The notes beneath the pieces were generated by a model. The model saw only the letters and a list, made by a program, of their open reading frames with translations, made no database searches and was not told where the DNA came from. A program made the translations under genes and the position numbers. Of a DNA stretch of 39,383 bases, positions 8,575 through 38,782 are shown piece after piece; within the stretch, counting starts at the first letter, position 1; each line of letters opens with the position of its first letter. The DNA comes from Syntrophaceae bacterium. Its GTDB lineage: Bacteria > Desulfobacterota > Syntrophia > Syntrophales > Smithellaceae. The DNA is taken from NCBI GenBank assembly GCA_003142535.1, contig PLMQ01000062.1, forward strand, positions 1 through 39,383. Direction: 5' to 3'.

Positions 8575-8908
8575 TATCTAAATATTTTCTAGTTGAATTA
8601 TTTTACTATACGTTCGCAAAAAAGCTTCTTTGCTTTTAAGAAACTTTTTTTGATTGATATGATATTGCTTCTGGATTATTGGACTATAGGAATGTTAATC
8701 TTATATGTCAAGGGAATCTTAACTGCAAAATGTGGAGTATGTTCCCGATATCGGTTTTAGAGTGTGAATTGTGTTGGTCACAAATTGAAAGCACGTATGC
8801 ACATAGAATATTCTTGATGCTTTTTTCAGGATGAGTCTTGTAAAATCGTATTTTTATGAAAATATGCGATTTCTTAAAAATAGTCATTTCACTTAAAGGT
8901 TTACGTAT
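8575..8908. other. AT-rich gap between the type III and Gabija genes
   Basis: No gene seen. The gap probably holds the end of the type III operon and the gajA promoter. The sequence at 8619-8640 forms a weak hairpin that on the minus strand reads AAAAGC-AAAGAA-GCTTTTTT, and a -10-like TATAGT lies on the minus strand at about 8605-8610. Neither is strong enough to be called. Confidence 0.4.
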
Positions 8909-13512: not shown

Positions 13513-13516
13513 AATT

Positions 13517-16456: not shown

Positions 16457-16592
16457 AGAAGTGATTTTACGTTTCGCCTTTCAAGTTATTTGATGCTGAA
16501 AAACATAAACCAAAATAACGTATTGGAAATACACCTTAATCGATGATTTAGTTAATAAATATAAAATATCCTTTGTAACTTTTATTGTTCAT

Positions 16593-17447
16593 TTACAGCC
16601 TGTTTTTGCCTTCGAGAAACCTCTGTAATCTTATCCAATTGACATTATAATTGACTAATTCCTGTTTCGTTTCATATCTCGGTTTGGCTACAATCGCTTG
16701 GGGTGCAGGATTCAATAAAGCAGCTAGAGGAGATAACTGTTTTCTTGCCAAATTGAAATCTCCAATGCCAAAGTTATAATTAAAAGATGGCTTATTGGAT
16801 ATATATGCTGGAGTGTCATGAACTTCAACTAAGCTCTCAGAATAATTACCTGTTAGAAAAGTCTTTTTTTCTTCAGAAGAGAGTTTTGCCGCGAATTCCT
16901 TCGTTGCCAATCCATTATCCGGCTGCACGTTCTTTTCCAATTTTGCAACCACGTGTAAAGGCATGCCTATAGCCGTTAAATTATAATCACCCCATGGTCC
17001 AATATTCCCTAGTATCAATTTTCCATAATGCATTATTATTCGAGATTTAAAAGGAAAGTTTCCAAATGTTTGATCAAGTGATTTCATCTTCGTCATAGCA
17101 GTACGCGCGAAATAGGCTGCTTTTAAAACATTTAAAGCCATATCATAGTTATTTGGGAAATAGGCCATAACGCTATCACCTGCATACTCGACTTGCCTGG
17201 CATCAGATCCAAATGTGCGTGTAATGTCATCGATGGTTGACAGGAAAACATGGGCTATTTTGAAGTATGTTTGAGATGATCGCCGCAAAAAAAATAAGGT
17301 TGAATTACACAAGTCAATTTTCAGAATATAATAATCAGCTTCCGTACCTTCACCACGATTCAGTTCGGAAGGTGTTTTTTCATTTGATAATCCTTCAGCG
17401 GTTTCTGCATAATATTTATTTATAATTTCATCCACTGTCTTAGGCAT
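16593..17447 (-). CDS. Class III nucleotide cyclase, second cyclase of a Pycsar-like cluster
   Basis: A soluble class III cyclase domain of 284 residues. The two metal-binding aspartates are present: Asp45 in LKIDLCNST and Asp91 in EYAGDSVMAYF. Residues that define ordinary adenylate cyclases are changed. The position of the base-recognising Lys holds Glu87, the Asp of the D-Y-T-x-I-G motif is Asn156, and the transition-state Asn and Arg are replaced by His165 and Lys169 in AIGMPLHVVAKL. Such drift in base-recognition residues would fit a pyrimidine cyclase (PycC), which makes cCMP or cUMP on infection, but the product cannot be read from sequence. The gene follows the membrane-protein gene by 69 bases and has a good Shine-Dalgarno (AAGGAG). 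There is no sensory domain or membrane segment. Confidence 0.72.
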   Translation of the reverse strand: MPKTVDEIINKYYAETAEGLSNEKTPSELNRGEGTEADYYILKIDLCNSTLFFLRRSSQTYFKIAHVFLSTIDDITRTFGSDARQVEYAGDSVMAYFPNNYDMALNVLKAAYFARTAMTKMKSLDQTFGNFPFKSRIIMHYGKLILGNIGPWGDYNLTAIGMPLHVVAKLEKNVQPDNGLATKEFAAKLSSEEKKTFLTGNYSESLVEVHDTPAYISNKPSFNYNFGIGDFNLARKQLSPLAALLNPAPQAIVAKPRYETKQELVNYNVNWIRLQRFLEGKNRL

Positions 17448-17516
17448 TCAAGCCTTCTCCTTAAAATCAGAAATGATATAAGATAATTATTTTAATTATT
17501 ATTCTAAACAATAAAT

Positions 17517-18164
17517 CTATTTTGATACGGTACACAAAACATTCTTTACTTTGATAGCATAAATTATCAAACCCATGATCACCCAACACACCGTAAATCT
17601 GAATGCCCATAGTTGTCTAATTAATTTCATATCTCGTATATAGGCTAATTTCATTTTTTCAAAGATTAGCTCCTCGAATATTTCAATTTTTGTTGAAGGC
17701 ATGTCTTTACAGTATTCTGCGAACGCTTTCTCCGAGACGATTGATGATCTATTAAAAACAGCGTCAATAAGATTTCGGTTATATAACCCTCCTGAATAGA
17801 AAGTTCCCTTAGTTTGTTTATTCATTGCTTTGATATGACTTAGCGGATTATCTATTGCTGCAATACCTCTGTATGTACAAATACAAGCAAGCAACCAAAG
17901 TATTGCACACATGACAATGATGACCGCTTTTAAAATTTGAATTATACATCCATCATTCGTGCTCAAAATTAGAAATAACCCAGAGTATATTTTGCCTACA
18001 TTCGTAATAGGAATGATGTTCAAGATGAGAATAAATCCTAATTTGGTGTCGATTGATTTGATTGTTGCTTGCGTGTCACTAATGGACTGATACATAAACG
18101 TTAAGACATTTTCGTTCTTTTCTTTCAGATCAGTTATGGCTTTTTTAGCATTATCGTCTTTCAT
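17517..18164 (-). CDS. PycTM-like membrane effector of a Pycsar-like system
   Basis: A small membrane protein of 215 residues with hydrophobic helices at about 42-66, 76-96 and 186-206. The segment DTKLGFILILN (39-49) matches the conserved D-x-K start of the first helix in the Pycsar effector family. The late segment FEKMKLAYIRDMKLIRQ just before the last helix also fits. In known Pycsar systems PycTM binds cCMP or cUMP and damages the inner membrane, killing or arresting the infected cell. The gene lies between two cyclase genes (30 and 69 bases away), which strongly supports the assignment. The Shine-Dalgarno is good (AGGGGG seven bases before ATG). The match is by eye and remote. Confidence 0.68.
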   Translation of the reverse strand: MKDDNAKKAITDLKEKNENVLTFMYQSISDTQATIKSIDTKLGFILILNIIPITNVGKIYSGLFLILSTNDGCIIQILKAVIIVMCAILWLLACICTYRGIAAIDNPLSHIKAMNKQTKGTFYSGGLYNRNLIDAVFNRSSIVSEKAFAEYCKDMPSTKIEIFEELIFEKMKLAYIRDMKLIRQLWAFRFTVCWVIMGLIIYAIKVKNVLCTVSK

Positions 18165-18194
18165 CTATGCGCCCCCTGTGATGTAGACATCAAG

Positions 18195-18944
18195 TCATTC
18201 GTTCACAATATATCCTTTGAAATCTTTAAATGGTCTCATTGTAAATTTCAGTTTGCCATCTTTTGAAGAAGGCCATATCATCTCGAGATTTTCATGAACA
18301 ATAATTTCATTTCTTCCTTTAGAAAGCTGAGATGCTAGATAAATACATTCTCCGATCACTTTAATCTGCGTATCTGGATGTAATCCAAAGTGGGAGATAA
18401 TGGCATCGCTATATGCCAGCCCGATTCCTATTTCCAGTGAAGGCAAACCATATCTTTGGTACAAGATTGGATTGACGACTTCATTTAGACTATCCATGCA
18501 GCCTCTTGCTGCGGTTACTGTATTTTTTAGAATCTGATTTCTTTCGTCAATATTTCGAGAAGATTGAAATAATGCTAATAGTCCATCACCTAAATATTCG
18601 GTAACAGCGCCCTCATAATCTTGTATTAGTTTTGCCATCGCTGGCAATAAAGCAGACACCTCGTAGTAAACTCTTTGCATTTGACTTACTTTGGCAATGC
18701 GAGCGCTGATAGCTTGTCGCAGATGTTTCGTAGAATCTCTCATGTCCAGCATCAAACAAACGAACTCATCAGATTTATATTCGTTTTTATCCAAGTATGG
18801 GTGGCCAGGTATATGTGCATCAGAAAACGCGGCACGAAGAACCCGTTTTTCTTTACCGATGGTATTGTTCCAAAGCTCTTCACATCTATTAAGTGAAGTT
18901 TCGACTATTGAAGTAAGTTCTTTCCTTTTTGTGTCTGTGAGCAT
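18195..18944 (-). CDS. Class III nucleotide cyclase, first cyclase of a Pycsar-like cluster
   Basis: A soluble cyclase of 249 residues. Metal-binding aspartates are Asp67 in CLMLDMRDST and Asp120 in EYLGDGLLALF. As in the other cyclase, the base-recognising Lys position is Glu116 and the D-Y-T-x-I-G aspartate is replaced (Gln193). The usual Asn and Arg of the transition-state pair are Tyr202 and Gln206 in VIGECIYLASQL. The first 55 residues are a short helical extension, with no membrane segment. It is the first gene of the three-gene cluster and shares little obvious identity with the second cyclase beyond the E-Y-x-G-D motif. Class III domains work as dimers, so the two could form a heterodimer; that is a hypothesis. 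An ordinary cAMP-signalling cyclase is possible but unlikely in this setting. Confidence 0.72.
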   Translation of the reverse strand: MLTDTKRKELTSIVETSLNRCEELWNNTIGKEKRVLRAAFSDAHIPGHPYLDKNEYKSDEFVCLMLDMRDSTKHLRQAISARIAKVSQMQRVYYEVSALLPAMAKLIQDYEGAVTEYLGDGLLALFQSSRNIDERNQILKNTVTAARGCMDSLNEVVNPILYQRYGLPSLEIGIGLAYSDAIISHFGLHPDTQIKVIGECIYLASQLSKGRNEIIVHENLEMIWPSSKDGKLKFTMRPFKDFKGYIVNE

Positions 18945-19391
18945 TTGTATCTAGTATTCATTGAATAATAAAATTGCTATTTGTTAACCTCAGTTTATCG
19001 CATGCCGCTGTTAATGAATGTATCATGAAGTCTATACTTCATAATTGTTCATGTCAACTGAAGAGTACAGTGTAATTATATGTAATAAAAGCAGCTTACG
19101 CTAAATAAACTTCTTTATTCTTTGATTTTTTCTTCAACTAAACGGATAAGTGCCACCATGAAATTCCTAAGGCTTTGGCCAGTTGAAAGATTGTTATCAA
19201 TGAAAGTTATTTGGTGCCATAAAAAGACAGAAGTTGGAAAAACTCCTGCAACAAAATGTCTCATGCTGGCCGGAAAACTGTCATCGTATTATTAATAAAT
19301 CATCACCTCATTCATTTGTAGAAAACTAATCCAAGTTTCAAATCTCTTAAATGCTTTTACGTTATGTTTATTAGCCATAATTCATTCAGCT
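18945..19391. other. Gap upstream of the cyclase cluster
   Basis: About 450 bases separating the defence genes from the mobility genes. It should contain the promoter of the cyclase cluster, but no convincing -35/-10 pair was found. It holds a possible broken gene on the minus strand (listed separately). Confidence 0.4.
19115..19264 (-). pseudogene. Short ORF, probably the remnant of a decayed gene
   Basis: A 49-codon frame on the minus strand, ATG at 19264 to TAA at 19115. The frame is open for a few codons further upstream before hitting a stop. The residue mix (SLRNFMVALIRLVEEKIKE at the end, preceded by FPTSVFLWHQITF) looks like real protein rather than random translation. There is no ribosome binding site and the family is not recognised. 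It may be a fragment of an older cargo or mobile-element gene. Confidence 0.25.
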
Positions 19392-19718
19392 CTATATGGC
19401 GAGCTTTCCTGTTTTTTTATAATCTTCTAATATTTCCTTTGCGGTGTTGAATATCTTCACCCAAGCAGCCACACCCTTTTCTTGACGAATATTTTCAGCC
19501 ATAAAAGCACAATTCATTATAAGCAAATTCTTTAAAGATTTAATATCTCCTTCTATTTTTTTTAAATTTATAATTGTCTTTTCTGTCTTTTCCTGTTCAT
19601 AGGCAAATATTATTTTTTGCCGAATTAATTCGGACATTGAGCATTTTTTATCTGTTGCTTCCTGATCCATTCTTGCCCTTAGCTCACCCTTTATCCTGGT
19701 TCCAATAACCTTCTTCAT
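19392..19718 (-). CDS. Ribbon-helix-helix DNA-binding protein (MobC/CopG-like)
   Basis: A protein of 108 residues. Residues 3-40 fit a ribbon-helix-helix fold: a beta strand (KKVIGTRIKGELRARM), then two helices with SMSELIRQKI. Residues 45-65 form a short coiled coil. Such proteins act as plasmid or island repressors, antitoxins or relaxosome accessory factors (MobC); no partner relaxase or toxin is seen nearby, so a repressor or partition role is the safest reading. Palindromic GTTAAC sites lie upstream of the gene and could be its own operators. Confidence 0.6.
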   Translation of the reverse strand: MKKVIGTRIKGELRARMDQEATDKKCSMSELIRQKIIFAYEQEKTEKTIINLKKIEGDIKSLKNLLIMNCAFMAENIRQEKGVAAWVKIFNTAKEILEDYKKTGKLAI

Positions 19719-19777
19719 CTGTTAACCTCGTATACATATATTTTCATTACTAAATTGTCCTATTTTTTATTTGCTGT

Positions 19778-19856
19778 GTTAACAAATTGTTAACGCTTAA
19801 TATTTAATTATATCAGCTACTAATAATCGTTTTTTCATCCCGTTGTTAACGCTTGA
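19778..19856. promoter_or_regulatory. Repeated TTGTTAACGCTT sites and GTTAAC palindrome upstream of the RHH gene
   Basis: A 17-bp palindrome, GTTAACAAATTGTTAAC, lies at 19778-19794. Its right half continues as TTGTTAACGCTT (19788-19799), and the same 12 bases recur at 19843-19854, about 55 bp away. They lie in the 287-bp gap between the winged-helix gene and the ribbon-helix-helix gene, 60-140 bases upstream of the latter. The arrangement fits operators for a dimeric DNA-binding protein, plausibly that one. Confidence 0.45.
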
Positions 19857-20005
19857 GCAGAATTTTTCTGCGTAGGGTCTCCGGAAATAACCCGCGTACT
19901 CTTCCATTAACCTCTTACCTGAGTTCTTCACTCCATATTATCAAATATGAGATTATTAAATTGTGATTCGCTGAATATTTTTTTACAGGCTCTAAACATT
20001 ATCTC

Positions 20006-21313
20006 TTACAAAGAAACTTTTTTAAGGGCTTCTTTCATTGCCACTTTAAATCCTTCTCTTGTTCTATCATCCTTGAAGATGCCTGGTATTTCTTTGAAGC
20101 ACCTCTGATACAGTTCACCATTTTCATTGGCCATCATTTCTACATATCTTGATTGTAGCGTAGCTTCTTTATCCCTATTTTCGAGGTCGATTAATTCTTT
20201 GGCTATACGTTCTTTTTCTTCAACCTGCTTTTTTAAATCGGCCAGTCTTCTTTCTTCAAGTGTTAAGTACCCCTTGGGAATACGGTAGGCCTCATTCTTC
20301 TTGATACAACCATAAAAATAATCAATAGGTGACTTTCTTAGAACCAGGGCTTCATCGTTTAAAATATGGAAAGCGCATCTCGAAAGATAGAGTATCATAT
20401 CCTCCAGGGTCAGATCGAATTCCTGGAGCCATTTTAAGACGTCCTGCGGGGTTAAATGATTATCGGTCCAAAATAACAAATCCGGATGATAATCAAAATA
20501 TTCCTCGATTTCTCTTAGTAGTAGTGGTTCTTTATTATTAAGAAAACTACTACTACTGTTCTCGAATGGGTGATTCAATCGGTGTGCCAATGGGTGAACC
20601 ATGGGGTGAGGGTTATAGATATTTGATCTCTGGTTGTCGATGCACATGGAATCAAAATCAATACCTCTGAGTTTCCGATCCAGTTGAGTCCGGTCATCTC
20701 CGACAACCCGAATGGGACAGCCTGTAGCTTCCGCAGTAAATCCGTGCAGCCCCAGACAATTGCTTCGTCCATGATATAGAACGGCTCCCGTTTCTTTTAG
20801 CTTTTTCAAGGCTGATTTGAGTGTGTCCCGCGATATTCCGGTAGCTTTGCTGATCTTAACAAGATTGGTCAATCGGCCATTGATCTCTTCGATACAACGA
20901 TACAGATAATACTGGGTGTTATTCAGGACTATTTCTTTGGGAAAATTTTGTTCATTGTGATCATCACCCACCGTTTGACCTATCGATTCCGCTATCGGTT
21001 GAACAATCGATCCCTTCACCGCTTGAACAATAGGTGAAGCATTGGGTGAAGGAATGGGTATATCGATTGGTTCACCGGTTGATTCACCTAATGGTTGACC
21101 GATTGCATCACCCATTGAGTTATCGTTTCTATTACCGTTTGGTATATGGACAGCGGAAATTATATCTCTTATTTTTACCGGCGTGATTGTATTTCGGGTC
21201 TCAGGAATTGCTTTGTCTTTTAATACTGCCTTGTCATAAAACTCATCGGCCTTAGATTTCATCATCGCCTGGACATAATCGGCCAAATGAGATTTACTGT
21301 TTTTATCTTTCAT
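20006..21313 (-). CDS. ParA-linked winged-helix protein, putative replication/partition factor
   Basis: About 435 residues from the ATG at 21313, which overlaps the end of parA; an upstream ATG at 21334 would add seven residues. Residues ~140-190 look like a winged helix-turn-helix (LVKISKATGISRDTLKSALK, then GAVLYHGR). Before it, residues 74-125 are a run of 13 tetrapeptides of the type IGQP/LGES/IVQP, and a second short run (NPHP, MVHP, LAHR, LNHP) lies near 241-256. Both coincide with 12-bp DNA repeats (listed separately). The C-terminal part has charged helices. Its place after ParA and AlpA suggests a plasmid-like replication or segregation protein of the island, by inference. No catalytic motif is visible. 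Confidence 0.6.
   Translation of the reverse strand: MKDKNSKSHLADYVQAMMKSKADEFYDKAVLKDKAIPETRNTITPVKIRDIISAVHIPNGNRNDNSMGDAIGQPLGESTGEPIDIPIPSPNASPIVQAVKGSIVQPIAESIGQTVGDDHNEQNFPKEIVLNNTQYYLYRCIEEINGRLTNLVKISKATGISRDTLKSALKKLKETGAVLYHGRSNCLGLHGFTAEATGCPIRVVGDDRTQLDRKLRGIDFDSMCIDNQRSNIYNPHPMVHPLAHRLNHPFENSSSSFLNNKEPLLLREIEEYFDYHPDLLFWTDNHLTPQDVLKWLQEFDLTLEDMILYLSRCAFHILNDEALVLRKSPIDYFYGCIKKNEAYRIPKGYLTLEERRLADLKKQVEEKERIAKELIDLENRDKEATLQSRYVEMMANENGELYQRCFKEIPGIFKDDRTREGFKVAMKEALKKVSL
20565..20612. repeat. Second cluster of 12-bp repeats inside the winged-helix gene
   Basis: Four consecutive 12-mers: AATGGGTGATTC, AATCGGTGTGCC, AATGGGTGAACC and ATGGGGTGAGGG. They resemble the larger array at 20970-21125; the core TGGGTGAA occurs at 20591-20598 here and at 21043-21050 there. 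The gene reads the two cores in different codon phases. Confidence 0.65.
20970..21125. repeat. Main array of 12-bp iteron-like repeats inside the winged-helix gene
   Basis: Thirteen consecutive 12-mers without gaps, for example ATCGGTTGAACA (20994), ACCGCTTGAACA (21018), ATTGGTTCACCG (21066) and AATGGTTGACCG (21090). The common theme is AT-GGTT-A-C. Some units read better on the opposite strand (GGTGAA/TTCACC), so the unit is partly palindromic. On the coding strand they give a run of tetrapeptides. Confidence 0.75.
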
Positions 21314-22154
21314 TTGTTTTAGCATCCAGGACATTGATTATTTCACGAGCCACATCCATATAAGCCTTGGCACCAGAAGCAGAGCTATTATAATCAAATA
21401 TGGATTGGCCCAGGGTTTCGGCTTTCTGGAAATCAGTATTAACGGGAATTACTTGATTGAACACTTCTGAATTATCAAAAGATTGCCTTATAGCTTGAAT
21501 GATATTGTTGCAGATCGATGTTCGTTTATCGGCCATTGTCACGAGCAGTTTCAAAAATCTAATATCCGGGTTGTGGCTTGCTTTGATGTCATCGATAAAA
21601 GCTTTTGCCTTGATTAATCCATTAACAGAAAATTTGCTGCCCGCCATTGTTGGAATGATGACACAATCAGAGGCGATGAGCGCTGAAATCACAAATGCTT
21701 CCAGATTAGGTGGACAATCGATAATTGTTAAATCATAATTTGCCGCCGCATAAGATCGAAGGTATTTACGCAAGGTAAATAAACTGTCCACACCGTTGAT
21801 AATCATTTTGGGCCCGAGAATTGCCGATTCCGGGATGTTGGGTAAGATATCCAGTCCCAGCCATTGCGTGGAATATATGGCCTCTGATAAGACTACACCG
21901 AACTCAGGGTTCAGGATATCGCAAAGGCTGTTCTTAATGTGATGCTGCCGACTATTGAGTAAAATATCGGTGGCGTTGCATTGGCTGTCCATGTCCACGA
22001 CAAGCACTCGTTTGCCCAGTATCGAAAGTGCAACACTTGTGTTCACAGCGGTTGTGGTTTTTCCGACTCCGCCCTTATTGTTTATTATACTGATAATCAT
22101 AACGGTGTTTTGTGCTTCTTTCTTTTCGATGTGATCTTGTTTATCTCCTTTCAT
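21303..22154 (-). CDS. ParA-family partition ATPase
   Basis: A ParA/Soj-type ATPase of 283 residues. The deviant Walker A is KGGVGKTT (27-34), preceded by the typical MIISIINN. VLVVDMDSQCNATDILL and LTIIDCPPNLE follow as the A' and Walker B motifs. ParA proteins move DNA by ATP-driven patterning, and on integrated elements they support maintenance after excision. The start overlaps the alpA stop by four bases (ATGA), and its end overlaps the winged-helix gene, so the three form one operon. A second Met at residue 19 (22100) is an alternative start without a clear ribosome binding site. No ParB homologue is recognisable; the winged-helix protein may fill that role. Confidence 0.85.
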   Translation of the reverse strand: MKGDKQDHIEKKEAQNTVMIISIINNKGGVGKTTTAVNTSVALSILGKRVLVVDMDSQCNATDILLNSRQHHIKNSLCDILNPEFGVVLSEAIYSTQWLGLDILPNIPESAILGPKMIINGVDSLFTLRKYLRSYAAANYDLTIIDCPPNLEAFVISALIASDCVIIPTMAGSKFSVNGLIKAKAFIDDIKASHNPDIRFLKLLVTMADKRTSICNNIIQAIRQSFDNSEVFNQVIPVNTDFQKAETLGQSIFDYNSSASGAKAYMDVAREIINVLDAKTNER

Positions 22155-22363
22155 GGTTTGCGTACCCCATTATTGATGAGTGCTATAATATCTACAACTC
22201 TCCACGCTGTTGTTCTTCTCCCCAGTTTGACCGGTTGAGGAAAACGTCCTTCCTTTACTCCGGCCCACCAGCTGGATTTGGAAATGGGAATTATGGCCGG
22301 TCTTGTTTTGTCTCCGATAATTTGATTGATCCTTAAAAATCCGGTTTCCGGTAATCTGTTCAT
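22151..22363 (-). CDS. alpA: AlpA-like regulator/excisionase
   Basis: A protein of 70 residues of the AlpA family. It has the segment ISKSSWWAGVKEGRFPQPVK followed by LGRRTTAWRVVDI, which matches the winged-helix signature of AlpA/Xis-like proteins. AlpA proteins activate integrase expression or act as directionality factors for P4-type integrases, which fits the integrase about 1.2 kb away. A strong Shine-Dalgarno (AGGAGG, seven bases before ATG at 22363) decides the start; the longer open frame to 22474 lacks one. It overlaps parA by four bases. Confidence 0.82.
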   Translation of the reverse strand: MNRLPETGFLRINQIIGDKTRPAIIPISKSSWWAGVKEGRFPQPVKLGRRTTAWRVVDIIALINNGVRKP

Positions 22364-22585
22364 CTTGTTTCCTCCTGCACAAAATTGATTCGCTGTTTTT
22401 TGCCAATGTCCTTCAATAGTTTTTTTAAGTCTTTTTTCTATTGATTCTGGTTGGCTTTGTTTTGCTGCGGACAAAATAAAGCAAAGCCGCGTAGATGTCA
22501 GTCACCTCGAATCGACACGAGTGGGGAAATGTCTTAATAATTAAAGGCTTGACTTTAAAATAATATTTAATAAGAAGATGATGAT

Positions 22586-23464
22586 ATGGAAAAATACGGA
22601 TGGGACAGGTATAGAAAAGAAGGTTTACAAGAGCTTCGGCAGATCAAGGAATCTCCCCTGTTCGGCAATAAGAATGCCCAAAAATCATTTCTGGAAATTT
22701 ATTACCAAATCTACCACGACGAAAAAGAAGATCAAATCAAGGCAACAGTCTTTTATCCGGAAAGTATAAGTAATATTGTAGCACAACACAGAGCCAGGAC
22801 TGTAATTAAAGATTTGCGCAAGAGCATAGATAAATTTTATGAATTTGCAGAAGGAAAAGATGCAAAATTTGAAATTTATTTTATCGCTGAAAGTGGAGAT
22901 TATAAGTTAGGGATACGGCCTAAGAAAATAAATGCCCAATTGTTCTCTCCGGAAGAAGCTGTATCCTATAACGAGCATCAGCATTTTATTATCAGGCACA
23001 GGCCTGCCGCAATGAAAATGTTTAGGGGTTTGCTTTTATTAATAGCGCCTCTTCTTTTTTTGATTAGTTTGGTTATTCTTTATGTGGAGAGATTTCATTC
23101 CTCCTGGTTAATTTTTTTTGTTGGTTTAAGTGGTGTTATTTTAAGTCTGGGGATGGCCTATATTGTCATTGTATTGTTTAAATTCATGTTTCGTGAATTG
23201 GTGCATTTGTCATCAAAGTATTTTCTCAAAGACGCCATCGATCATATTGCTCTTGTCTCTTATTCGGCAAAATGCCCCGTTGCAGGATGTGGGGGAAATG
23301 TGTTTGTTTCCGACGAGTATGACGAGCGGGTAGAAGACAGCGGATATGTTGCTAAATGTTCAAGAGATCCCAAAGGGCATAAGTTTTCTATTGATGCCCA
23401 AACGCTTAAAGGAAAAAGAATCAAGATCAAAACCCGATTCCCATTGATGAATATTTTTCGTTAG
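22586..23464 (+). CDS. Hypothetical membrane protein with C-terminal zinc-binding-like motif
   Basis: A protein of 292 residues, the only large plus-strand gene in the island part. Residues 1-140 are soluble and charged. Two strong transmembrane helices lie at about 147-167 and 173-199. The C-terminal ~95 residues carry C-x4-C (220, 225) and Cys248 with His255, suggesting a small zinc ribbon. No family is recognised. It converges with the integrase gene (54 bases apart), opposite to all neighbours, and may be a separate cargo gene. The ribosome binding site is weak. Confidence 0.65.
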   Translation: MEKYGWDRYRKEGLQELRQIKESPLFGNKNAQKSFLEIYYQIYHDEKEDQIKATVFYPESISNIVAQHRARTVIKDLRKSIDKFYEFAEGKDAKFEIYFIAESGDYKLGIRPKKINAQLFSPEEAVSYNEHQHFIIRHRPAAMKMFRGLLLLIAPLLFLISLVILYVERFHSSWLIFFVGLSGVILSLGMAYIVIVLFKFMFRELVHLSSKYFLKDAIDHIALVSYSAKCPVAGCGGNVFVSDEYDERVEDSGYVAKCSRDPKGHKFSIDAQTLKGKRIKIKTRFPLMNIFR

Positions 23465-23518
23465 TTTACTTTGGCTTCTAAAATCTCGCATGGCAGCTCT
23501 GTCCACCGATAGTTAATT

Positions 23519-24748
23519 TTATACTGCTGCTTTCTTAAATGGCAGTACCTTAGCTTCTATTTTTAATCCGTCTAGATAATCAGCCCATGTCTGCATCATC
23601 TTCTTTCGTTCGGGTAAGTGCGATGTCCTGTTATAGGCTCTGCCTAATACGTCAAGAACTCTATGCGCTAATTGCGCCTCGATAAGATCAACCCGGACCT
23701 GTAATACTTCGTCCAGGATAGTTCTTGCCATTGCCCGAAAGCCATGCGGTGTCATTTGTTCCGCCGTGTAGCCCATATTCCGAAGTGCGGCCAAAATGGC
23801 GTTATTGCTCATCGGCCTGTTCGATGTCCTTCCATGAAACACGTAAACCCCATTACCTGTAAGCGGTTTGATTTCATTTAGTATCTCAAGAGATTGCTTT
23901 GATAGTGGAACAATATGCGGTTGTCGAAGTTTCATCTTGTGTGCGGGGATATGCCACTCGGTTTTTTCAAAATCGAGTTCGTCCCACTGCATGTGTCGGA
24001 GCTCTCCCGGCCTAACAAATACAAGCGGCGAAAGCCTAAGCGCGCATCGAACGATAAACGAACCATGATAACTATCAATTACCCTGAGAAGATTAGCCAC
24101 TTCATTCGGCTCTGTAATGGCCGCTAGGTGCCTTTTTTTTGCTGGTGACAATGAACCTATAAGGTCCTGCGCTAGATTGTGTTGAGCGCGTCCAGTGGCA
24201 GTGGCATATCTAAAGATCATGTTACAGATACCTCTCAATCTGTGTGCCGCGTCAACCGCCCCGCGTGATTCTGTCCGCCTCAATGCTGCCAATAATTCCG
24301 GTGCTGTAATATCCTTTATCGGCTTTGCGCCAATCCATGGGAAAAGGTCACGCTCCAAAGCCCGCATCATTTTAAGCGCGTGGCCTTCCGTCCATTTTGA
24401 TTTAAACTTGTCATGCCATTCTCTGGATATGACCTCAAAAGTTTCGGTCTCTTCGGTCTTAGCCTGCTTTTGTGCTTTACGAACTGCATCCGGATCAACA
24501 TCATTCGCCAGAAGTCGTCGGGCGTCGTCGCGACGTTGTCGCGCATCTTGCAAACTAATTTCTGGATATGATCCAAAAGCAAGTTTCTTCTCCTTATTGT
24601 TAAAGCGATATTTAAATCGCCACAACTTACCGCCGGAAGGCGTCACGAGCAGATATAAACCACCACCGTCAAATAAAGAAACTGGCTTGCTCTGTGGTTT
24701 TGCTTTTTGAACCTTCATGTCTGACAAGGGAATAATTCGTTTAGGCAT
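23519..24748 (-). CDS. P4-type tyrosine integrase
   Basis: A full-length tyrosine recombinase of 409 residues. The N-terminal DUF4102 domain (LFDGGGLYLLVTPSGGKLWR) is typical of P4-type island integrases. The catalytic set is present: Arg in VFVRPGELRHMQW, the His-x-x-Arg in TPHGFRAMAR, a second His in AHRVLDVLG and the Tyr nucleophile in RAYNRTSHL. The start (24748) has GAGG upstream. The gene begins 184 bases from the 3' end of tRNA-Ala, the usual target of this class, so it is the integrase of the island. Three GGGTACCC-type sites lie just upstream. Confidence 0.95.
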   Translation of the reverse strand: MPKRIIPLSDMKVQKAKPQSKPVSLFDGGGLYLLVTPSGGKLWRFKYRFNNKEKKLAFGSYPEISLQDARQRRDDARRLLANDVDPDAVRKAQKQAKTEETETFEVISREWHDKFKSKWTEGHALKMMRALERDLFPWIGAKPIKDITAPELLAALRRTESRGAVDAAHRLRGICNMIFRYATATGRAQHNLAQDLIGSLSPAKKRHLAAITEPNEVANLLRVIDSYHGSFIVRCALRLSPLVFVRPGELRHMQWDELDFEKTEWHIPAHKMKLRQPHIVPLSKQSLEILNEIKPLTGNGVYVFHGRTSNRPMSNNAILAALRNMGYTAEQMTPHGFRAMARTILDEVLQVRVDLIEAQLAHRVLDVLGRAYNRTSHLPERKKMMQTWADYLDGLKIEAKVLPFKKAAV

Positions 24749-27712: not shown

Positions 27713-27893
27713 GCGCCGCGGGATAATTCGTCCTGCAAGCTTCAGCTTGTGACCTCTTGTGGCCTTTAGGTTACTTGTAACCTTCAGGTTATGCGCTTCG
27801 CTTTCGGAATTGGAGTTTCACAACCACCGCTTACGCGGGATAGTTCAACTTACCAATTTCAATGCACTACGTTTTTGAAATTGGAGTTTCACT
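27713..27893 (+). repeat. Covarying-hairpin repeat, composite copy upstream of the receiver-like gene
   Basis: A full hairpin copy: CCAATTTCAA (27853-27862) pairs with TTGAAATTGG (27875-27884) around the loop TGCACTACGTTT, followed by AGTTTCAC. In front of it lies a partial copy ending TCGGAATTGGAGTTTCAC, with units related to the 18-bp tandem repeat at 29792. The hairpin sits 15 bases before the Shine-Dalgarno of the next gene. Confidence 0.75.
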
Positions 27894-27910
27894 ATGAAAA
27901 GGAGATGGAG

Positions 27911-29564: not shown

Positions 29565-29897
29565 TATTTGGCCTTAAGAAATTGTACTTGAAAAAGTAAA
29601 GGGGATAATCCCGCTCAGCTTCGTACGCGGGATTAATTCAGCTAACAGATATTACTTCACTACGTTTGCAATATCTGAGTTTCATTAATTCGACCAGCAA
29701 ACTTCAGCTTGTGACCTCTTGTCACCTTCAGGTGGTCAGGTTACGCACTTTGTTTCTGAAGTTTGGGTCTCATTACAACTTACCAATTCCTACTTGTGAC
29801 CTTTAGGTTACTTGTGACCTTTAGGTTACTTGTGACCTTTAGGTTATGCGCTTTGCTTTCGGAATTGGAGTTTCACGAATAATCTCCCCCCGAATCT
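29565..29897 (+). repeat. Cluster of three covarying-hairpin repeats
   Basis: This 333-base gap holds three hairpins in the same orientation. CAGATATT (29646) pairs with AATATCTG (29670); CAAACTTCAG (29698) with CTGAAGTTTG (29756); CCAATTCC (29783) with GGAATTGG (29861). The loop of the third contains three perfect tandem copies of ACTTGTGACCTTTAGGTT (29792, 29810, 29828). Each 18-bp unit contains a small hairpin of its own, GTGACC-TTTA-GGTTAC. No gene is seen in the gap. Confidence 0.75.
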
Positions 29898-30215: not shown

Positions 30216-30525
30216 GAAAATTATCTCCTTCCCTTGATGGAAATTGTCCGTCGCTCTTCTAAAGAAGTTATCCACATTCAGTGTATTGTCAATTACATTT
30301 TTTAAAATATTACCGCAAGGAATTGATTATTCGAAGATTTGTTTCCATTGACATTAAAAGCAACTCTCGCTTATTATTCATTTTAAGGATTAAAATCACG
30401 GGTATAAACCCCACAGCAAGCTGCGGGATATTATACCCTCCGCTCATACGGGATTGTTCAACTAACCGATTCCGCCGCGCTTCGCTCGCTGAATCGGAGT
30501 TTCACTATAAAAAAGGAGCGTTTCT
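30216..30525. other. Divergent promoter region with repeat sequence
   Basis: A 310-base gap between the selenoprotein gene (minus) and the transglutaminase gene (plus). The left half should contain both promoters, but no clear -35/-10 pair was found. The right half (about 30397-30503) is a copy of the hairpin repeat with its leader (GGGTATAAACCCC...GCGGGATATTATACCC). Confidence 0.45.
30466..30497 (+). repeat. Covarying-hairpin repeat upstream of the transglutaminase-like gene
   Basis: CCGATTC (30466-30472) pairs with GAATCGG (30491-30497); the loop contains GCGCTTCGCT and AGTTTCACTA follows. Compared with the CCAATTCC copies, the third position of one arm and its partner in the other arm are both changed (A to G, T to C), so pairing is kept. 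The hairpin ends 14 bases before the gene's Shine-Dalgarno. Confidence 0.75.
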
Positions 30526-32951: not shown

Positions 32952-33217
32952 CTGTAAAGAGACTCACTTATTTACCATCGTCGGTAACATATGTTAACTT
33001 TTCGAACATTTTAATAATGGACTCGATCGTAAAAAGAATGGCTTTTATAAATAAAATAAATTTTGAAAAACCGGATATTGGTTTGCTGAAAATTGAATAT
33101 ACCTATCATGAATTACCCGGAGCTGCTGGAAAAAAATATGCGTTACAGCTACCGCTTTATCAACGCCAAATCCCGCATACTGAAAGAACGTCTGGGGCTC
33201 GGCTCGCGCAAATGTCT
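32952..33217. other. Gap without a supported gene
   Basis: About 270 bases between the HD-hydrolase gene and the terminator of the CoA-transferase fusion gene. A plus-strand frame from 33108 (MNYPELLEKNMRYSYRF...) looks protein-like for about 35 codons, but has no ribosome binding site and runs into the terminator hairpin, so at most it is a gene remnant. Confidence 0.35.
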
Positions 33218-33257
33218 CAAAAATACATTCCTCCGCCGGAAAAGCGGAGGAATGTAT
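33218..33257 (-). terminator. Rho-independent terminator of the CoA-transferase fusion gene
   Basis: On the minus strand, ATACATTCCTCCGC pairs perfectly with GCGGAGGAATGTAT around a 7-base loop and is followed by T residues. It begins 12 bases after the stop codon at 33270. Confidence 0.88.
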
Positions 33258-33269
33258 CAATTGATATCT

Positions 33270-35720
33270 TTATTCTTTCAGACGCAGCATACTCTTTTCC
33301 TGCATCCACTTGCCTTTGATTGCGCGCTGCAGCGCCAGGCTGGTCAGGCCGCGGTGATCCGTAGCACTGTAACTGATCGACGGCAGAAGGCCTCCTGTCC
33401 AATCTTTCAAGCTCTCCAGGGCGGCAACAAACCCCTTACGGGTTAGCTCCGGGCCAGCCTGTTTCAAACCCTCCACAACCAGTTGAGCTGCGGCATAGCC
33501 GATGACACTGTCTGTGCCGACAACGATATCGCCATATTCCCTTTGCATAAGCATACGGAACAAGCGCGGCCCGCGATGGTAAATCGGGCCGCGGGGATAA
33601 CAAATGGTTCTCACGCCGTGTGTCGCTTCATCACCGGCAAACCTGATCAATTCTTTGGTGGAAACAACGGAAGTACCTATCCATGACGGTTTAAAATTAA
33701 CGTCATGAGCTTTGGCCAGCAGTTCCGATGCCGGGACAATATAAGTGTAAAGCAATACCAAATCTGGCGAACACGCCTGCAAATCCTCCACCCACTTGAC
33801 AGGATCGCATTCGCCCGGCTGATGTTTGATTGTATGAACCTTCTTCAGACCTAGCTTGCTCATTTCTGCGGCAAATGAAGCCGCGCCTTCGTTGCCAAAA
33901 GGATCATCCACAGCAAAGACGGCAACTGATGACGGTTTCAGTTCATCCATAACATACTGCGCGATCAGTCTCCCTTCCATCAGGTAAGAAGGCTGCAGGG
34001 CGAAATAATTACTCTTCAGGGGCACCGACCATGCTGATGAACCGCTCACTGGCGCTATAACAGGAATGTTTTGTTCCACCAGATAATCCAGAACAGCTAA
34101 ATTCGTCGGTGTGCCTTGCGGGCTGACAATGGCAAATACTTGATCTTTGTTGATTAGTTTTTCCGCTGCCTTTTTGGTCCGGACAGGATTGAACCCGTCA
34201 TCTTCCATTACTACGTCAATGCGTCTTCCGCAAACTCCCGCCTGATTATTGATGTGGTTATAATAAGCCATAAAACCGCGCATCACGCCCATGCCTATAG
34301 CTGCATTGGGCCCGGAAAGATCGCAGAAAGTCCCCAGTTTGATGATCTTGGAGCTGACGCCAGGCGCTGTCGCTTTCAATTTCGGCACTATCAGATCAGC
34401 ACCGGCAAATGCCATATGAGGCACAATGCCCAGACGATGGGCTTCTTCCCGGATGAAATCGCGAAATTTGGGATGGGCAATTTTAATCAAAGCTTCCATG
34501 CGGTCTTTGACGCAAAGCCCCTTCAATTCGGCAACGCCATATTCCGTCACAATGGTATCCGTTTCGTGGCAGGGTACGGTAATTTCCGAACCATGGGATA
34601 AAATCGGGACGATCGTGGAAATTGTTTCATCCTTGGCTGTGGAACGAAGGGCAATGATGCCTCGCCCGCCATGGGAAAGCTGCGCTCCGCGATGGTAATC
34701 AAGCTGGCCGCCTGTCCCGCTGTAATGCTGCACACCAATACTTTGTGAACAAACCTGGCCGTTGATATCCACCTGCAGGGCGGTATTCACGCTGATCATC
34801 TTGTAATTCTGGCCGATAATCGCGGGATTATTCGTGTAGCGTCCGCGCTGAAATTCGACGCCTAAATTATTATTCACAAAATCATAAAGCTTCTTGCTGC
34901 CCAGGGCAAAGGCTCCGATCATTTTATCTTTATGCAGGGTCTTGTTTTTGCCGGTGATTACGCCGGCCTCATACAAATCAACCATGCCGTCCGTATACAT
35001 TTCCGTATGAACACCCAGGCCGCGCCTTTCCATCAAAAAAGGAGTGATGGCATTAGGAATGCCGCCGATACCCAGTTGGATTGTCGCCCCATCTTCAATC
35101 AACTCCGAGATATAACCGCCGATTGCTTTTTCCCAATCGGTTGAGGGAACAACGGGTAAGGCCGGAATGGCGATATGATTTTCGACTACATAATCAACAT
35201 CGGAAATGTGAACGTGGGTATCACCCAGCGTCCAGGGAAGGTTTTCATTTATTTCCAAAACAACCATGTCGGCTGCTTCCATAAAATCTTTTTCGACCAC
35301 GAGGCCGAGCGAAAGCGACATATAACCGCGTGAATCCGGTGGTGTAGCAGTTCCCCAGAATATATTTACATGGCCACCATTGGCTTTGAGCTTGTTCAGA
35401 CCGGCAGCGTGTAAATTTGCCGGAAGAAATGAATTACGTCCCTGCGAATGCGCAACGCGGTCCGGAGCGCCGAAAAACCAGTTTTCGGAAAAGAAGTGCC
35501 CCGACATTTCCGGCTTATTAATGTAGTCGTACATGCGCAACGGCAGACAAACCCAGACCGTTACATCTTCAACCCTGGTACAGTGTTTTCCTAATTCCGT
35601 CAGTAAGCCGGACGCTTCGGCAGCGGCGATTCCTGTGGCAATTTTTTGGTGTGATTGCACCAATGATACTGCTTCGGGAATAGAAATCAGCTTCTGTTTG
35701 TAAAGAATTTTGGGATCCAT
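33270..35720 (-). CDS. Fusion of an acetyl-CoA hydrolase/CoA-transferase with a type I periplasmic-binding (Leu/Ile/Val-type) domain
   Basis: A protein of 816 residues built of two normally separate proteins. Residues 1 to ~440 are a complete CoA-transferase of the acetyl-CoA hydrolase/4-hydroxybutyrate CoA-transferase family, with IQLGIGGIPNAI and the signature TEYGVAELKG followed by AHPKFRDFI. Residues ~460-816 are a complete branched-chain amino-acid type binding protein (IKLGTFCDLSGPNAAIG near 464, IVSPQGTPTN, VAVFAVDDPFGNEG). There is no signal peptide, so the binding domain should be in the cytoplasm, where it could sense a small acid or its CoA ester and control the transferase. This is inference. 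AAGGAG precedes the ATG. No frameshift or internal stop is seen and the linker is in frame. Confidence 0.88.
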   Translation of the reverse strand: MDPKILYKQKLISIPEAVSLVQSHQKIATGIAAAEASGLLTELGKHCTRVEDVTVWVCLPLRMYDYINKPEMSGHFFSENWFFGAPDRVAHSQGRNSFLPANLHAAGLNKLKANGGHVNIFWGTATPPDSRGYMSLSLGLVVEKDFMEAADMVVLEINENLPWTLGDTHVHISDVDYVVENHIAIPALPVVPSTDWEKAIGGYISELIEDGATIQLGIGGIPNAITPFLMERRGLGVHTEMYTDGMVDLYEAGVITGKNKTLHKDKMIGAFALGSKKLYDFVNNNLGVEFQRGRYTNNPAIIGQNYKMISVNTALQVDINGQVCSQSIGVQHYSGTGGQLDYHRGAQLSHGGRGIIALRSTAKDETISTIVPILSHGSEITVPCHETDTIVTEYGVAELKGLCVKDRMEALIKIAHPKFRDFIREEAHRLGIVPHMAFAGADLIVPKLKATAPGVSSKIIKLGTFCDLSGPNAAIGMGVMRGFMAYYNHINNQAGVCGRRIDVVMEDDGFNPVRTKKAAEKLINKDQVFAIVSPQGTPTNLAVLDYLVEQNIPVIAPVSGSSAWSVPLKSNYFALQPSYLMEGRLIAQYVMDELKPSSVAVFAVDDPFGNEGAASFAAEMSKLGLKKVHTIKHQPGECDPVKWVEDLQACSPDLVLLYTYIVPASELLAKAHDVNFKPSWIGTSVVSTKELIRFAGDEATHGVRTICYPRGPIYHRGPRLFRMLMQREYGDIVVGTDSVIGYAAAQLVVEGLKQAGPELTRKGFVAALESLKDWTGGLLPSISYSATDHRGLTSLALQRAIKGKWMQEKSMLRLKE

Positions 35721-35849
35721 AGACTTATCTCCTTATTTCGTTTATTATTATTTTAATCACGGGTATGAACCCCAAAGCAAGCTTCGGAAATATTTCGCGA
35801 GCTCTCTGCGGGGTATTATACCCTCCGCTGCGCGGGATTGTTCAACTTA

Positions 35850-35881
35850 CCAATTCCGATGCGCTACGTTTTCGGAATTGG
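35850..35881 (+). repeat. Covarying-hairpin repeat
   Basis: CCAATTCCGA (35850-35859) pairs with TCGGAATTGG (35872-35881). The loop is TGCGCTACGTTT, the leader GCGGGATTGTTCAACTTA and the follower AGTTTCACTA. This copy gives the clearest view of the family consensus. Confidence 0.8.
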
Positions 35882-35933
35882 AGTTTCACTAAGAAATGAA
35901 CAAAATTAATTTTCCCCCCACATTGAAACGTGC

Positions 35934-36052: not shown

Positions 36053-37063
36053 ATGGCTAAAGCTAAGATTATTGGAACAGGTATGTATGTTCCAGGAACT
36101 CCAATACCAAATAAGGAATTGTGGAAATTAACAGGCGTAGAATTTGACGAAGAAAAACTGGAATTAGGGATAGGCATCAAGCAAAGACACATGGCAAAAC
36201 TCCGAGGAATTCCGGAGACGACTGCTGATTTCGCCACAAAAGCAGCACAGGCGGCAATTGCCGATGCGAAGATTGATCCAATGGATGTGAGCCTTTTCAT
36301 CCTGGGATCGGATACACCGGAATATATTTCTCCGGGTTCAGCAGTTCTTGTACAAGGACGAATTCAGGGCAAGCAAATGCTGACGGGTTGTTTTGATTTA
36401 AATTGTTCCTGTGCAGGATTCGCGACATCTTTTGATGTTGGCGCCCGAATGGTTGCTACCGATCCGTCAATTAAATATGCAGTGGTCATCGGTTGTTATA
36501 ACATGCCCGCTTTTATCAAAGATGGCGATGCTTTCGGCCTTGCCATATTTGCCGACGGCGCCGGCGCAGTCGTTCTGCAAAAAACAGACGATAACGATAT
36601 CTCCGGATATATCGGCGGGCAACTGATGTCCGACGGAACACAATGGGATTTCATTGGCGTATACGCCGGCGGCACTAAAAAACCCATTACTCATGAAATA
36701 CTGGACAAAGGTGAATATGGTTTCCAGAATTTGAAACCTTTACCCGGAGACCGCAATTTAAAACTTTGGCCGCCGTTAACTCAGCAGGTACTGGAAAAAT
36801 GCCATCTAACTATCAATGATGTTGACCATATTATCTTTACCCAGATTAACAAATCGGTCATCGTTAAAGTCATGGGCATACTGGGGTTGCCTATGGAAAA
36901 AACAACCACGATTATGGATAAATACGGTTATACCGGATCCGGCTGTATTCCGATGGCTTTTCATCATGCCTTAAAGGAAGGCAAAGTAAAGAGAGGCGAT
37001 ACCTGCGTCTTTATCGCTTCCGGATCAGGATTCTATGTTGGCAGTAATGTATTCAACTATTAA
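36053..37063 (+). CDS. KAS III (FabH)-like condensing-enzyme homologue with altered active site
   Basis: A thiolase-fold protein of 336 residues, the usual size of 3-oxoacyl-ACP synthase III. The N terminus KIIGTGMYVPGTPIPNKEL and the nucleophile region DLNCSCAGFATS (Cys120) are typical. The other two catalytic residues are not: where FabH has His in H-Q-A-N, this protein has Thr263 in FTQINKS, and where FabH has Asn in G-N-T-S, it has Tyr293 in YGYTGSG. The reaction is therefore uncertain; it may be an acyl transfer rather than a decarboxylative condensation. Its neighbours are a CoA-transferase fusion and an acyl-CoA synthetase, suggesting acyl-CoA metabolism. AAAGGGG lies nine bases before the ATG. 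It ends in a strong hairpin terminator. Confidence 0.8.
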   Translation: MAKAKIIGTGMYVPGTPIPNKELWKLTGVEFDEEKLELGIGIKQRHMAKLRGIPETTADFATKAAQAAIADAKIDPMDVSLFILGSDTPEYISPGSAVLVQGRIQGKQMLTGCFDLNCSCAGFATSFDVGARMVATDPSIKYAVVIGCYNMPAFIKDGDAFGLAIFADGAGAVVLQKTDDNDISGYIGGQLMSDGTQWDFIGVYAGGTKKPITHEILDKGEYGFQNLKPLPGDRNLKLWPPLTQQVLEKCHLTINDVDHIIFTQINKSVIVKVMGILGLPMEKTTTIMDKYGYTGSGCIPMAFHHALKEGKVKRGDTCVFIASGSGFYVGSNVFNY

Positions 37064-37160: not shown

Positions 37161-37251
37161 ATTAATACCAATTCGCTTTCTTTGGCTAACTTTGTTGGCG
37201 GAGCCTCCTCCTTGCCGCATCTGATTCTTTGAAAGCAAAGTGGTATTAATT
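37161..37251. repeat. Short MITE-like element abutting the acyl-CoA synthetase stop
   Basis: About 90 bp bounded by TTAATACCAATTCGCTTTC (from 37162) and GAAAGCAAAGTGGTATTAA (to 37249), inverted with a 4-base mismatched patch. On the minus strand its interior reads ATGCGGCAAGGAGGAGGC, related to the element at 28507. The right end touches the TAA of the acyl-CoA synthetase gene. Confidence 0.65.
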
Positions 37252-38782
37252 AAATTTTAATGCTTGCTTTCACCACTTTTTTATCAATCTTACCGGCACC
37301 TGTTTTTGGTATTTCTTTAACAAATTTAAAATATTTTGGTATTTTGTATTTTGCCAATCTTTCCAGACAGTGTTTCTTGATTATTTCTTCATTAAGTTGC
37401 GGATCCTTGGGAACGATTACGGCACATCCTACTTCTCCCCATTTGGGGTCAGGAACACCGAATACTGTTACTTCGGCCACACCTTCATGGCCGAATATCG
37501 CGCTTTCAATTTCCGCCGGATAAATATTCTCGCCGCCGGAAATAATCATGTCTTTCAACCGGTCAACTATTTTGAAGTAACCTTCTTCATCCTTCATACC
37601 TAAATCACCGGTGTGCAACCAGCCATCAACAATTGTATTTTGGGTTGCTTCCCAATTATTCCAGTAACCGGAACAGACATGGTCACCTCTGATAATTATT
37701 TCGCCGATTTCGTTGGGGCCAACTTCCTTGCCTTCTTCGTCAACAAGCTTAACATCAATGTGGAATAAAGGAATCCCGACAAAACCCGGTTTCCGGCGAA
37801 CATCCGCTTTCGGCAGCCAGAATGTATTCGGGCCGGCTTCGGTTAATCCGTAACCGGTTTTAAAATCAATGCCCCTGGCCCAGAATCTTTCAAAAACATC
37901 AATGGGCGCTGGAGCTCCTCCGTTGATAACAAGCTTACACCGGGAGAAATCAACTTTATCCCAATCCTTGTGCTGTTGCATAGTAATGAACATAGTGGGC
38001 ACACCAAAAAATAACGTCACGTTCGAGTTGTTAATTAGATCAAATGTCTGGTCAACGCTGAAGCTCTTGCACAAGATACTCGTACCACCGGCTTGAACCA
38101 GCGGAGCCGTAAAAACATTTAATCCGCCAGTATGGAAAAGGGGAGCGTTTAATATGGCAACATCATTACAATCCAATCCCCAGGACATGACAGTATTTAT
38201 AGCATTAGTGTTAATTGCCCGAAAGGTGAGCAAGGCGCCTTTCGGCATGCCGGTAGTCCCTCCCGTGTAACAGATAACCCAGGGGTCATCCTGATCTATT
38301 TCCACTTTGGGGAATGACGCTGTCGGGAATTTGCTTTTATCAGAAAAAGATATATCTGCCGGAAGGGCTTTTTTGCCCAGAGCGACCCAATTGCTGACAC
38401 AACTGATGTTTTTCTGAAGGCCGGCAACGACTTCGCTGAAATCACTGGAATAGACTAAAACCTTTGGCGTAGCATAATCAATAATGCCTTTTAACTCCAT
38501 TGGAGCTAATCGCCAGTTTAAGCTCTGCATAATCGCTCCCAGCTTGTTGCAGGAAAACCATATATCCAGATATTCTTGACAGTTAGTAGACAGTACGGCA
38601 ATACGATCGCCTTTTTTGATCCCCAGAGACTGTAAATAATAAGCTGTCTGATTAGCGTTTTTATTCCATTGAGCATAAGTTAATTTTTCTTTTGTATCTG
38701 CATTTATCAGGGCCACTTTATCCGGTGATAACTGCGCTCTTTTCTCCAACCAGTCTGGAACATAACTTGTAGCATTTGACAT
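37250..38782 (-). CDS. Acyl-CoA synthetase (AMP-forming)
   Basis: An ANL-superfamily ligase of 510 residues, a normal length. The AMP-binding loop is YTGGTTGMPKG near residue 173. GYGLTEAG near 300, GWLHTGDLG near 390 and DRLKDMIISGGENIYP near 410 follow, and GAGKIDKKVVK at the end carries the catalytic lysine. The enzyme activates a carboxylic acid with ATP and CoA; it resembles medium/long-chain FadD-type synthetases, but the substrate is unknown. The Shine-Dalgarno is GGGAGG seven bases before the ATG. The upstream region shares a promoter-like sequence with the CoA-transferase fusion gene. Confidence 0.9.
   Translation of the reverse strand: MSNATSYVPDWLEKRAQLSPDKVALINADTKEKLTYAQWNKNANQTAYYLQSLGIKKGDRIAVLSTNCQEYLDIWFSCNKLGAIMQSLNWRLAPMELKGIIDYATPKVLVYSSDFSEVVAGLQKNISCVSNWVALGKKALPADISFSDKSKFPTASFPKVEIDQDDPWVICYTGGTTGMPKGALLTFRAINTNAINTVMSWGLDCNDVAILNAPLFHTGGLNVFTAPLVQAGGTSILCKSFSVDQTFDLINNSNVTLFFGVPTMFITMQQHKDWDKVDFSRCKLVINGGAPAPIDVFERFWARGIDFKTGYGLTEAGPNTFWLPKADVRRKPGFVGIPLFHIDVKLVDEEGKEVGPNEIGEIIIRGDHVCSGYWNNWEATQNTIVDGWLHTGDLGMKDEEGYFKIVDRLKDMIISGGENIYPAEIESAIFGHEGVAEVTVFGVPDPKWGEVGCAVIVPKDPQLNEEIIKKHCLERLAKYKIPKYFKFVKEIPKTGAGKIDKKVVKASIKI

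What the first reader, a model, noticed from the sequence alone, without database searches (positions are those of the whole stretch)
33270..35720. CoA-transferase fused to a cytoplasmic type I periplasmic-binding domain
A complete acetyl-CoA hydrolase/CoA-transferase runs in frame into a complete Leu/Ile/Val-type binding protein with no signal peptide. This places a small-molecule binding domain on a metabolic enzyme, suggesting allosteric control by an acid or amino acid, or substrate delivery to the active site. The gene has its own Shine-Dalgarno and a strong terminator and no sign of decay.
Basis: partly seen in the sequence, partly recalled or inferred. Interest (0 to 1): 0.72.

Follow-up and report, generated by a model that had tools for sequence, protein, structure and literature searches.

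The report
CoA-transferase fused to cytoplasmic binding domain
An enzyme that moves coenzyme A between organic acids carries, as a permanent second half, a nutrient-binding protein of the kind bacteria normally keep outside the cell; the same fused gene occurs in seven genomes of two distant lineages and is under strong selection, so the enzyme is probably switched or fed by a small molecule that this domain binds inside the cell.

Summary
Window 33270-35720 (minus strand) is one intact 816-codon gene: a complete Cat1-type CoA-transferase (about 1-430) joined by a roughly 25-residue linker to a complete type I solute-binding domain (about 458-816) with no signal peptide. It is neither an assembly error nor a one-off. 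Six other genomes carry the same full-length protein (64-85% identity): one relative in the same family and five Chloroflexota. The junction has the same length in all seven. Two further Chloroflexota encode the halves separately; in one they are adjacent genes with no signal peptide on the binding protein, and in the other they lie at two contig ends. The nearest outgroup binding proteins are ordinary lipoproteins beside Liv-type ABC genes. Hence a periplasmic binding protein lost its signal peptide, became a cytoplasmic partner of the CoA-transferase and was then fused to it; the gene probably reached the window's lineage from Chloroflexota. Both halves are under purifying selection and catalytic Glu240 is kept. 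The amino-group ligand of amino-acid binders (LivJ Glu226) is replaced, so a carboxylic acid without an alpha-amino group is the likelier ligand. Best reading: a ligand-sensing (allosteric) domain; substrate capture is the main rival. No binding or kinetic data exist.

The parts
34431..35720 (-). Cat1-family (family I) CoA-transferase domain, residues 1-430; catalytic Glu240 (aligned to Glu238 of 3GK7), QLGIG loop Q215-G219
   Evidence: Pfam; phmmer alignment to 3gk7 and 3eh7; motif positions; AF2 pLDDT mostly above 85 over 1-430
34350..34430 (-). Linker, residues 431-457, same length in all seven fusions; its end (ATAPGV) resembles the start of the mature domain of the periplasmic relatives
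   Evidence: alignment; dN/dS 0.28 against 0.04-0.06 in the domains
33273..34349 (-). Type I solute-binding (Peripla_BP_6, LIV-BP-like) domain, residues 458-816, no signal peptide
   Evidence: Pfam; domain-only AF2 model pLDDT 91.7, pTM 0.90; best solved matches 4n03, 4kv7, 3td9; hydropathy
33217..33260 (-). Intrinsic terminator-like hairpin with U tract directly downstream of the gene
   Evidence: RNA fold -28.5 kcal/mol, z -6.65
36053..37063 (+). Divergent KAS III-like (thiolase-fold) protein, the recurrent neighbour of this CoA-transferase subfamily
   Evidence: Pfam and NCBIfam; same kind of neighbour in L009 and in Chloroflexota/Bacillota clusters
37250..38782 (-). AMP-forming acyl-CoA ligase; a gene of the same family lies beside the fusion in L134
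   Evidence: Pfam; neighbourhood

Best explanation
The gene makes a cytoplasmic CoA-transferase with a built-in small-molecule sensor. The enzyme half uses the standard family I mechanism (Glu240 as the catalytic glutamate). The other half is a former ABC-transporter solute-binding protein that lost its signal peptide and now closes like a clam shell around an intracellular carboxylic acid, probably a substrate or product of the local acyl-CoA pathway; closure then changes the activity or assembly of the transferase. Shown here: the fusion, its conservation, intact catalytic motifs, lack of export signal, common descent from a periplasmic HAAT-type binding protein, and an unfused co-encoded form. 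Inferred: that a ligand is bound, that it is a non-amino carboxylic acid, and that binding controls the enzyme.
For: Seven full-length fusions: the window; L009, which is the same genome as G004; L109; L134-L137. In G543 the two halves are adjacent genes with a 29-nt gap and a signal-less binding protein; in G556 they lie at two contig ends. The nearest outgroup keeps a lipoprotein signal and sits near Liv genes. Related CoA-transferases of Bacillota and Chloroflexota lie in clusters that also encode a Liv transporter and its own periplasmic binding protein, so the ancestral partners plausibly belonged to one acid-handling pathway. Purifying selection on both halves. Complete, confidently predicted binding fold, with AmiC, a known sensor of this fold, among the matches (Z 37.4). 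The carboxylate-contacting hydroxyl position is kept (Thr for Ser79) and the amine ligand Glu226 is lost; several close structural matches bind plain carboxylic acids such as 4-hydroxybenzoate, 3-hydroxybenzoate, p-coumarate and phenylpyruvate.
Against: No ligand, binding or kinetic evidence. The full-length model has low overall confidence (pTM 0.57) and gives no reliable docking of the two halves. The linker is the least constrained part of the gene, which suits a loose tether as well as a coupled switch. Pocket residues differ inside the clade (for example position 226 is Ser in the window and Tyr in L109), so the ligand may differ. Several close CoA-transferases (L113, L010, L114-L117) show no such domain and manage without it.
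Confidence: 0.5

Rival explanations
1. Substrate capture or channelling: the binding domain collects the acid at low concentration inside the cell and delivers it to the adjacent transferase active site, raising effective affinity without allostery.
For: Tether of constant length but variable sequence; the domain descends from a protein whose job is scavenging substrate for an importer; carboxylate-type pocket; co-encoded as a separate soluble protein in G543.
Against: No predicted docking of the pocket to the active site; binding proteins of this fold release ligand slowly when closed (general knowledge), which is awkward for delivery without an ATP-driven partner.
Confidence: 0.22
2. Scaffold or localisation: the domain no longer binds a ligand and serves as an interaction module that holds the transferase to another protein (for example the KAS III-like partner, or a PHA granule in Chloroflexota).
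For: Recurrent neighbours KAS III-like, SDR, AMP ligase and, in L109 and L134, PHA synthase genes; pocket residues diverge between lineages.
Against: Clade-wide conservation of cleft-region motifs (GTxTxLAV, GxSxW, FALQPxY, YPxGP) and dN/dS of about 0.06 over the whole domain.
Confidence: 0.15
3. Sensor for something other than the enzyme itself: the fused binding domain reports acid levels to a separate regulator, in the way AmiC does to AmiR, and the fusion only keeps enzyme and sensor co-expressed.
For: AmiC is a sensor of this fold; large LuxR/MalT-like ATPase regulators seem to lie next to several of these clusters (reading, not checked against families).
Against: No such regulator lies beside the window gene or L009; fusion to the enzyme is not needed for this.
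Confidence: 0.08

Closest known systems
Family I (Cat1) CoA-transferases: 4-hydroxybutyrate CoA-transferase (PDB 3GK7) and relatives
   Same: Full-length homology (best solved match E 5e-95 to 3EH7), catalytic Glu and QXGhG loop aligned (residue roles from PMC11659651)
   Different: Carries an extra 370-residue solute-binding domain; scores far below the butyryl-CoA:acetate equivalog cut-off (286 of 674.8 bits); substrates unknown
HAAT/LIV-type ABC solute-binding proteins (LivJ, LivK, 4n03, 4kv7)
   Same: Same fold over the whole domain (Z 44.9 to 4n03, rmsd 2.0 over 360 residues) and sequence homology
   Different: No signal peptide or lipobox, no Liv transporter next to the window gene, amino-group ligand Glu226 replaced
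AmiC, amide sensor of Pseudomonas aeruginosa
   Same: A solute-binding-protein fold that acts as a sensor and releases a partner after binding a small ligand (PMC5259723; fold match 1pea); the best 'works like' precedent. That AmiC is cytoplasmic is from general knowledge
   Different: AmiC is a free protein acting on the antiterminator AmiR; here the domain is covalently part of an enzyme
CoA-transferase-GNAT fusions
   Same: CoA-transferase paralogues of the same genome and a relative (L003, L024) also carry a C-terminal add-on domain
   Different: The add-on is a GNAT acetyltransferase, not a binding protein

Membership tests
Family I (Cat1) CoA-transferase | Both AcetylCoA_hydro domains present and complete | tested here: met
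   PF02550 7-182 and PF13336 274-427 full profile
Family I (Cat1) CoA-transferase | Catalytic glutamate and QXGhG loop | tested here: met
   Glu240 aligns with Glu238 of 3GK7, Q215-L-G-I-G219 (residue roles)
Family I (Cat1) CoA-transferase | CoA-transfer activity between carboxylates | not testable with these tools
   needs enzyme assay
Butyryl-CoA:acetate CoA-transferase (TIGR03948) | Score above the curated equivalog cut-off | tested here: not met
   286.4 bits against 674.8
HAAT/LIV-type ABC solute-binding protein | Type I solute-binding fold | tested here: met
   Peripla_BP_6 5e-56; Z up to 44.9
HAAT/LIV-type ABC solute-binding protein | Signal peptide or lipoprotein anchor | tested here: not met
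   no hydrophobic segment; domain follows an enzyme in frame
HAAT/LIV-type ABC solute-binding protein | Encoded with Liv permease and ATPase genes | tested here: not met
   none seen in the window or around L009; present beside L109, where a second, exported binding protein is encoded
Amino-acid-specific LivJ/LivK type | Alpha-amino-acid ligands Ser79, Thr102, Glu226 | tested here: not met
   Thr, Gly, Ser at the aligned positions; residue roles from general knowledge
AmiC-type cytoplasmic sensor | Ligand-controlled interaction with an ANTAR partner (AmiR) | not tested
   no ANTAR gene was looked for specifically; membership is not claimed

The most novel reading that the evidence does not exclude
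An ABC-transporter binding protein was captured by a metabolic enzyme as an intracellular allosteric subunit, first as a separate signal-less protein and then by fusion, giving a CoA-transferase switched directly by the level of a pathway acid (perhaps a hydroxyalkanoate, since two Chloroflexota relatives lie beside PHA synthase genes).
Probability: 0.35. Interest if true: 0.75.

Novelty: new variant of a known kind. Interest (0 to 1): 0.6.

Why it matters
Both halves are familiar but the combination is not described in the open-access papers searched. If the domain controls the enzyme, CoA-transferases, usually treated as unregulated equilibrium enzymes (general knowledge), would have a direct ligand switch, and binding proteins of ABC importers would have a documented route into intracellular regulation: loss of the signal peptide, co-encoding with the enzyme, fusion, and transfer between phyla. 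The unfused pair in G543 gives a ready natural comparison.

Tried and rejected
Assembly or frameshift artefact: rejected, since six other genomes show the same junction. Decay: rejected on dN/dS. A periplasmic CoA-transferase: rejected, no signal. Amino-acid ligand: disfavoured. Docking of the two domains from the full-length model: uninformative, since with 49 mixed sequences the binding half was poorly modelled; the domain-only model was good. Monophyly of fusions: with three fusions the first tree split them but did not reject one clade (p-AU 0.16); with seven they form one clade in the CoA-transferase tree, not strongly supported (78/98), and the binding-domain tree leaves their order open. 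Plasmid search: no full-length match. Bacillota phylum sample (398 genomes): no fusion seen. Genome searches scored only the best few candidates per genome at strict thresholds, so counts of fusions are lower bounds. The substrate of the pathway could not be identified from neighbours.

Full report
The finding is correct in its anatomy. The minus strand of window 33270-35720 holds one open frame of 816 codons. Pfam places a complete acetyl-CoA hydrolase/transferase pair at 7-427 and a complete Peripla_BP_6 domain at 460-802. The nearest solved relatives of the first half are 4-hydroxybutyrate CoA-transferases (E down to 5e-95); those of the second half are LIV-type binding proteins. Glu240 falls on Glu238 of 3GK7 and the QLGIG loop is present, both discussed as active-site features of this family in PMC11659651. 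A hairpin with a U run follows the stop codon (z -6.7).

It is not an artefact. L009 (MAG RA.bin115, the same genome as G004, same family as the window's genome) has the gene at 84-85% identity. A sample of 350 genomes of the phylum of L011 (a Chloroflexi MAG) gave one full-length fusion at 66% (L109), and 396 genomes of that MAG's class gave four more (L134-L137, 64-67%). In all seven the linker has the same length and ends in the ATAPGV or TAPGV motif. In the class of the window only two of 155 genomes gave a full-length match.

Two further Chloroflexota show how it may have arisen. In G543 the CoA-transferase stops, 29 nt follow with a Shine-Dalgarno-like stretch, and a signal-less binding protein starts. 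In G556 the same two genes sit at two contig ends. Trees put these nine binding domains together with full support, next to a lipoprotein binding protein (43% identical) that lies near Liv transporter genes. The lipoprotein reads ...PRVPGVTADTIRLG where a fusion (L136) reads ...ATAPGVTADAIRLG, so the fusion point sits where the exported protein's signal and tether would end. The CoA-transferase tree places the window gene inside a Chloroflexota clade (100/99), which suggests horizontal transfer into the window's lineage; the seven fusions form one clade there with moderate support.

Both halves are under purifying selection between the window and L009 (dN/dS 0.04 and 0.06) while the linker is looser (0.28) (synonymous sites are near saturation, so the ratios are approximate). 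The binding half alone folds confidently (pLDDT 91.7) and matches many solute-binding proteins, including several holding plain carboxylic acids, and the sensor AmiC. Against LivJ/LivK the window has Thr at Ser79, Gly at Thr102 and Ser at Glu226: the amine ligand is gone, a carboxylate contact may remain. This alignment is at about 20% identity, so individual positions carry some risk.

Context: relatives of this CoA-transferase in Bacillota and Chloroflexota lie in clusters with a KAS III-like protein, SDR, MaoC or thiolase genes, alpha/beta hydrolases and a full Liv importer with its own exported binding protein (several of these names rest on reading the translations). L109 and L134 also have PHA synthase genes nearby. 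The window keeps only the divergent KAS III-like gene and an AMP ligase. The clusters point to acid uptake and acyl-CoA metabolism; the substrate remains unknown.

The most likely working model is a CoA-transferase whose activity answers to an intracellular acid bound by the fused domain. That ligand binding occurs, and that it alters catalysis, are inferences. Substrate capture is the main rival, then a scaffold role. I found no paper describing this architecture in five searches of the open-access library, which does not cover most subscription journals.

Noticed in passing
window 36053-37063 (+); also L009, L010, L112-L114, L117: The KAS III-like neighbour keeps the FabH cysteine but has Thr at His244 and Tyr at Asn274; the Bacillota neighbours have Ile/Leu and His. 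This suggests chemistry other than the usual decarboxylative condensation.
   Followed up: partly
window 27834-27899, 29627-29692, 30447-30512, 35831-35896: A 66-nt palindromic intergenic element recurs, with three further copies at 61-89% identity to the first, one of them in the divergent promoter region of the fusion.
   Followed up: no
L003, L024 (Pfam); L004, L026, L040, L045 (by similarity of the tail): Many CoA-transferase paralogues in the window's genome and relatives carry a C-terminal GNAT domain instead.
   Followed up: partly
L109 1081-2172 and 6592-8367; L134 5269-6894 and 7299-8414: PHA synthase-like genes lie in the fusion clusters of Chloroflexota, hinting at a link with hydroxyalkanoate metabolism.
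   Followed up: partly
window 5093-24748: Reading of the translations suggests a restriction/helicase and methyltransferase group, two cyclase-like proteins, a ParA-like protein and a tyrosine integrase, possibly a mobile island; not checked against families.
   Followed up: no
L009 fusion, about residue 731: The RA.bin115 copy lacks six residues (VGTDS region) that the other fusions keep, in the binding domain.
   Followed up: no
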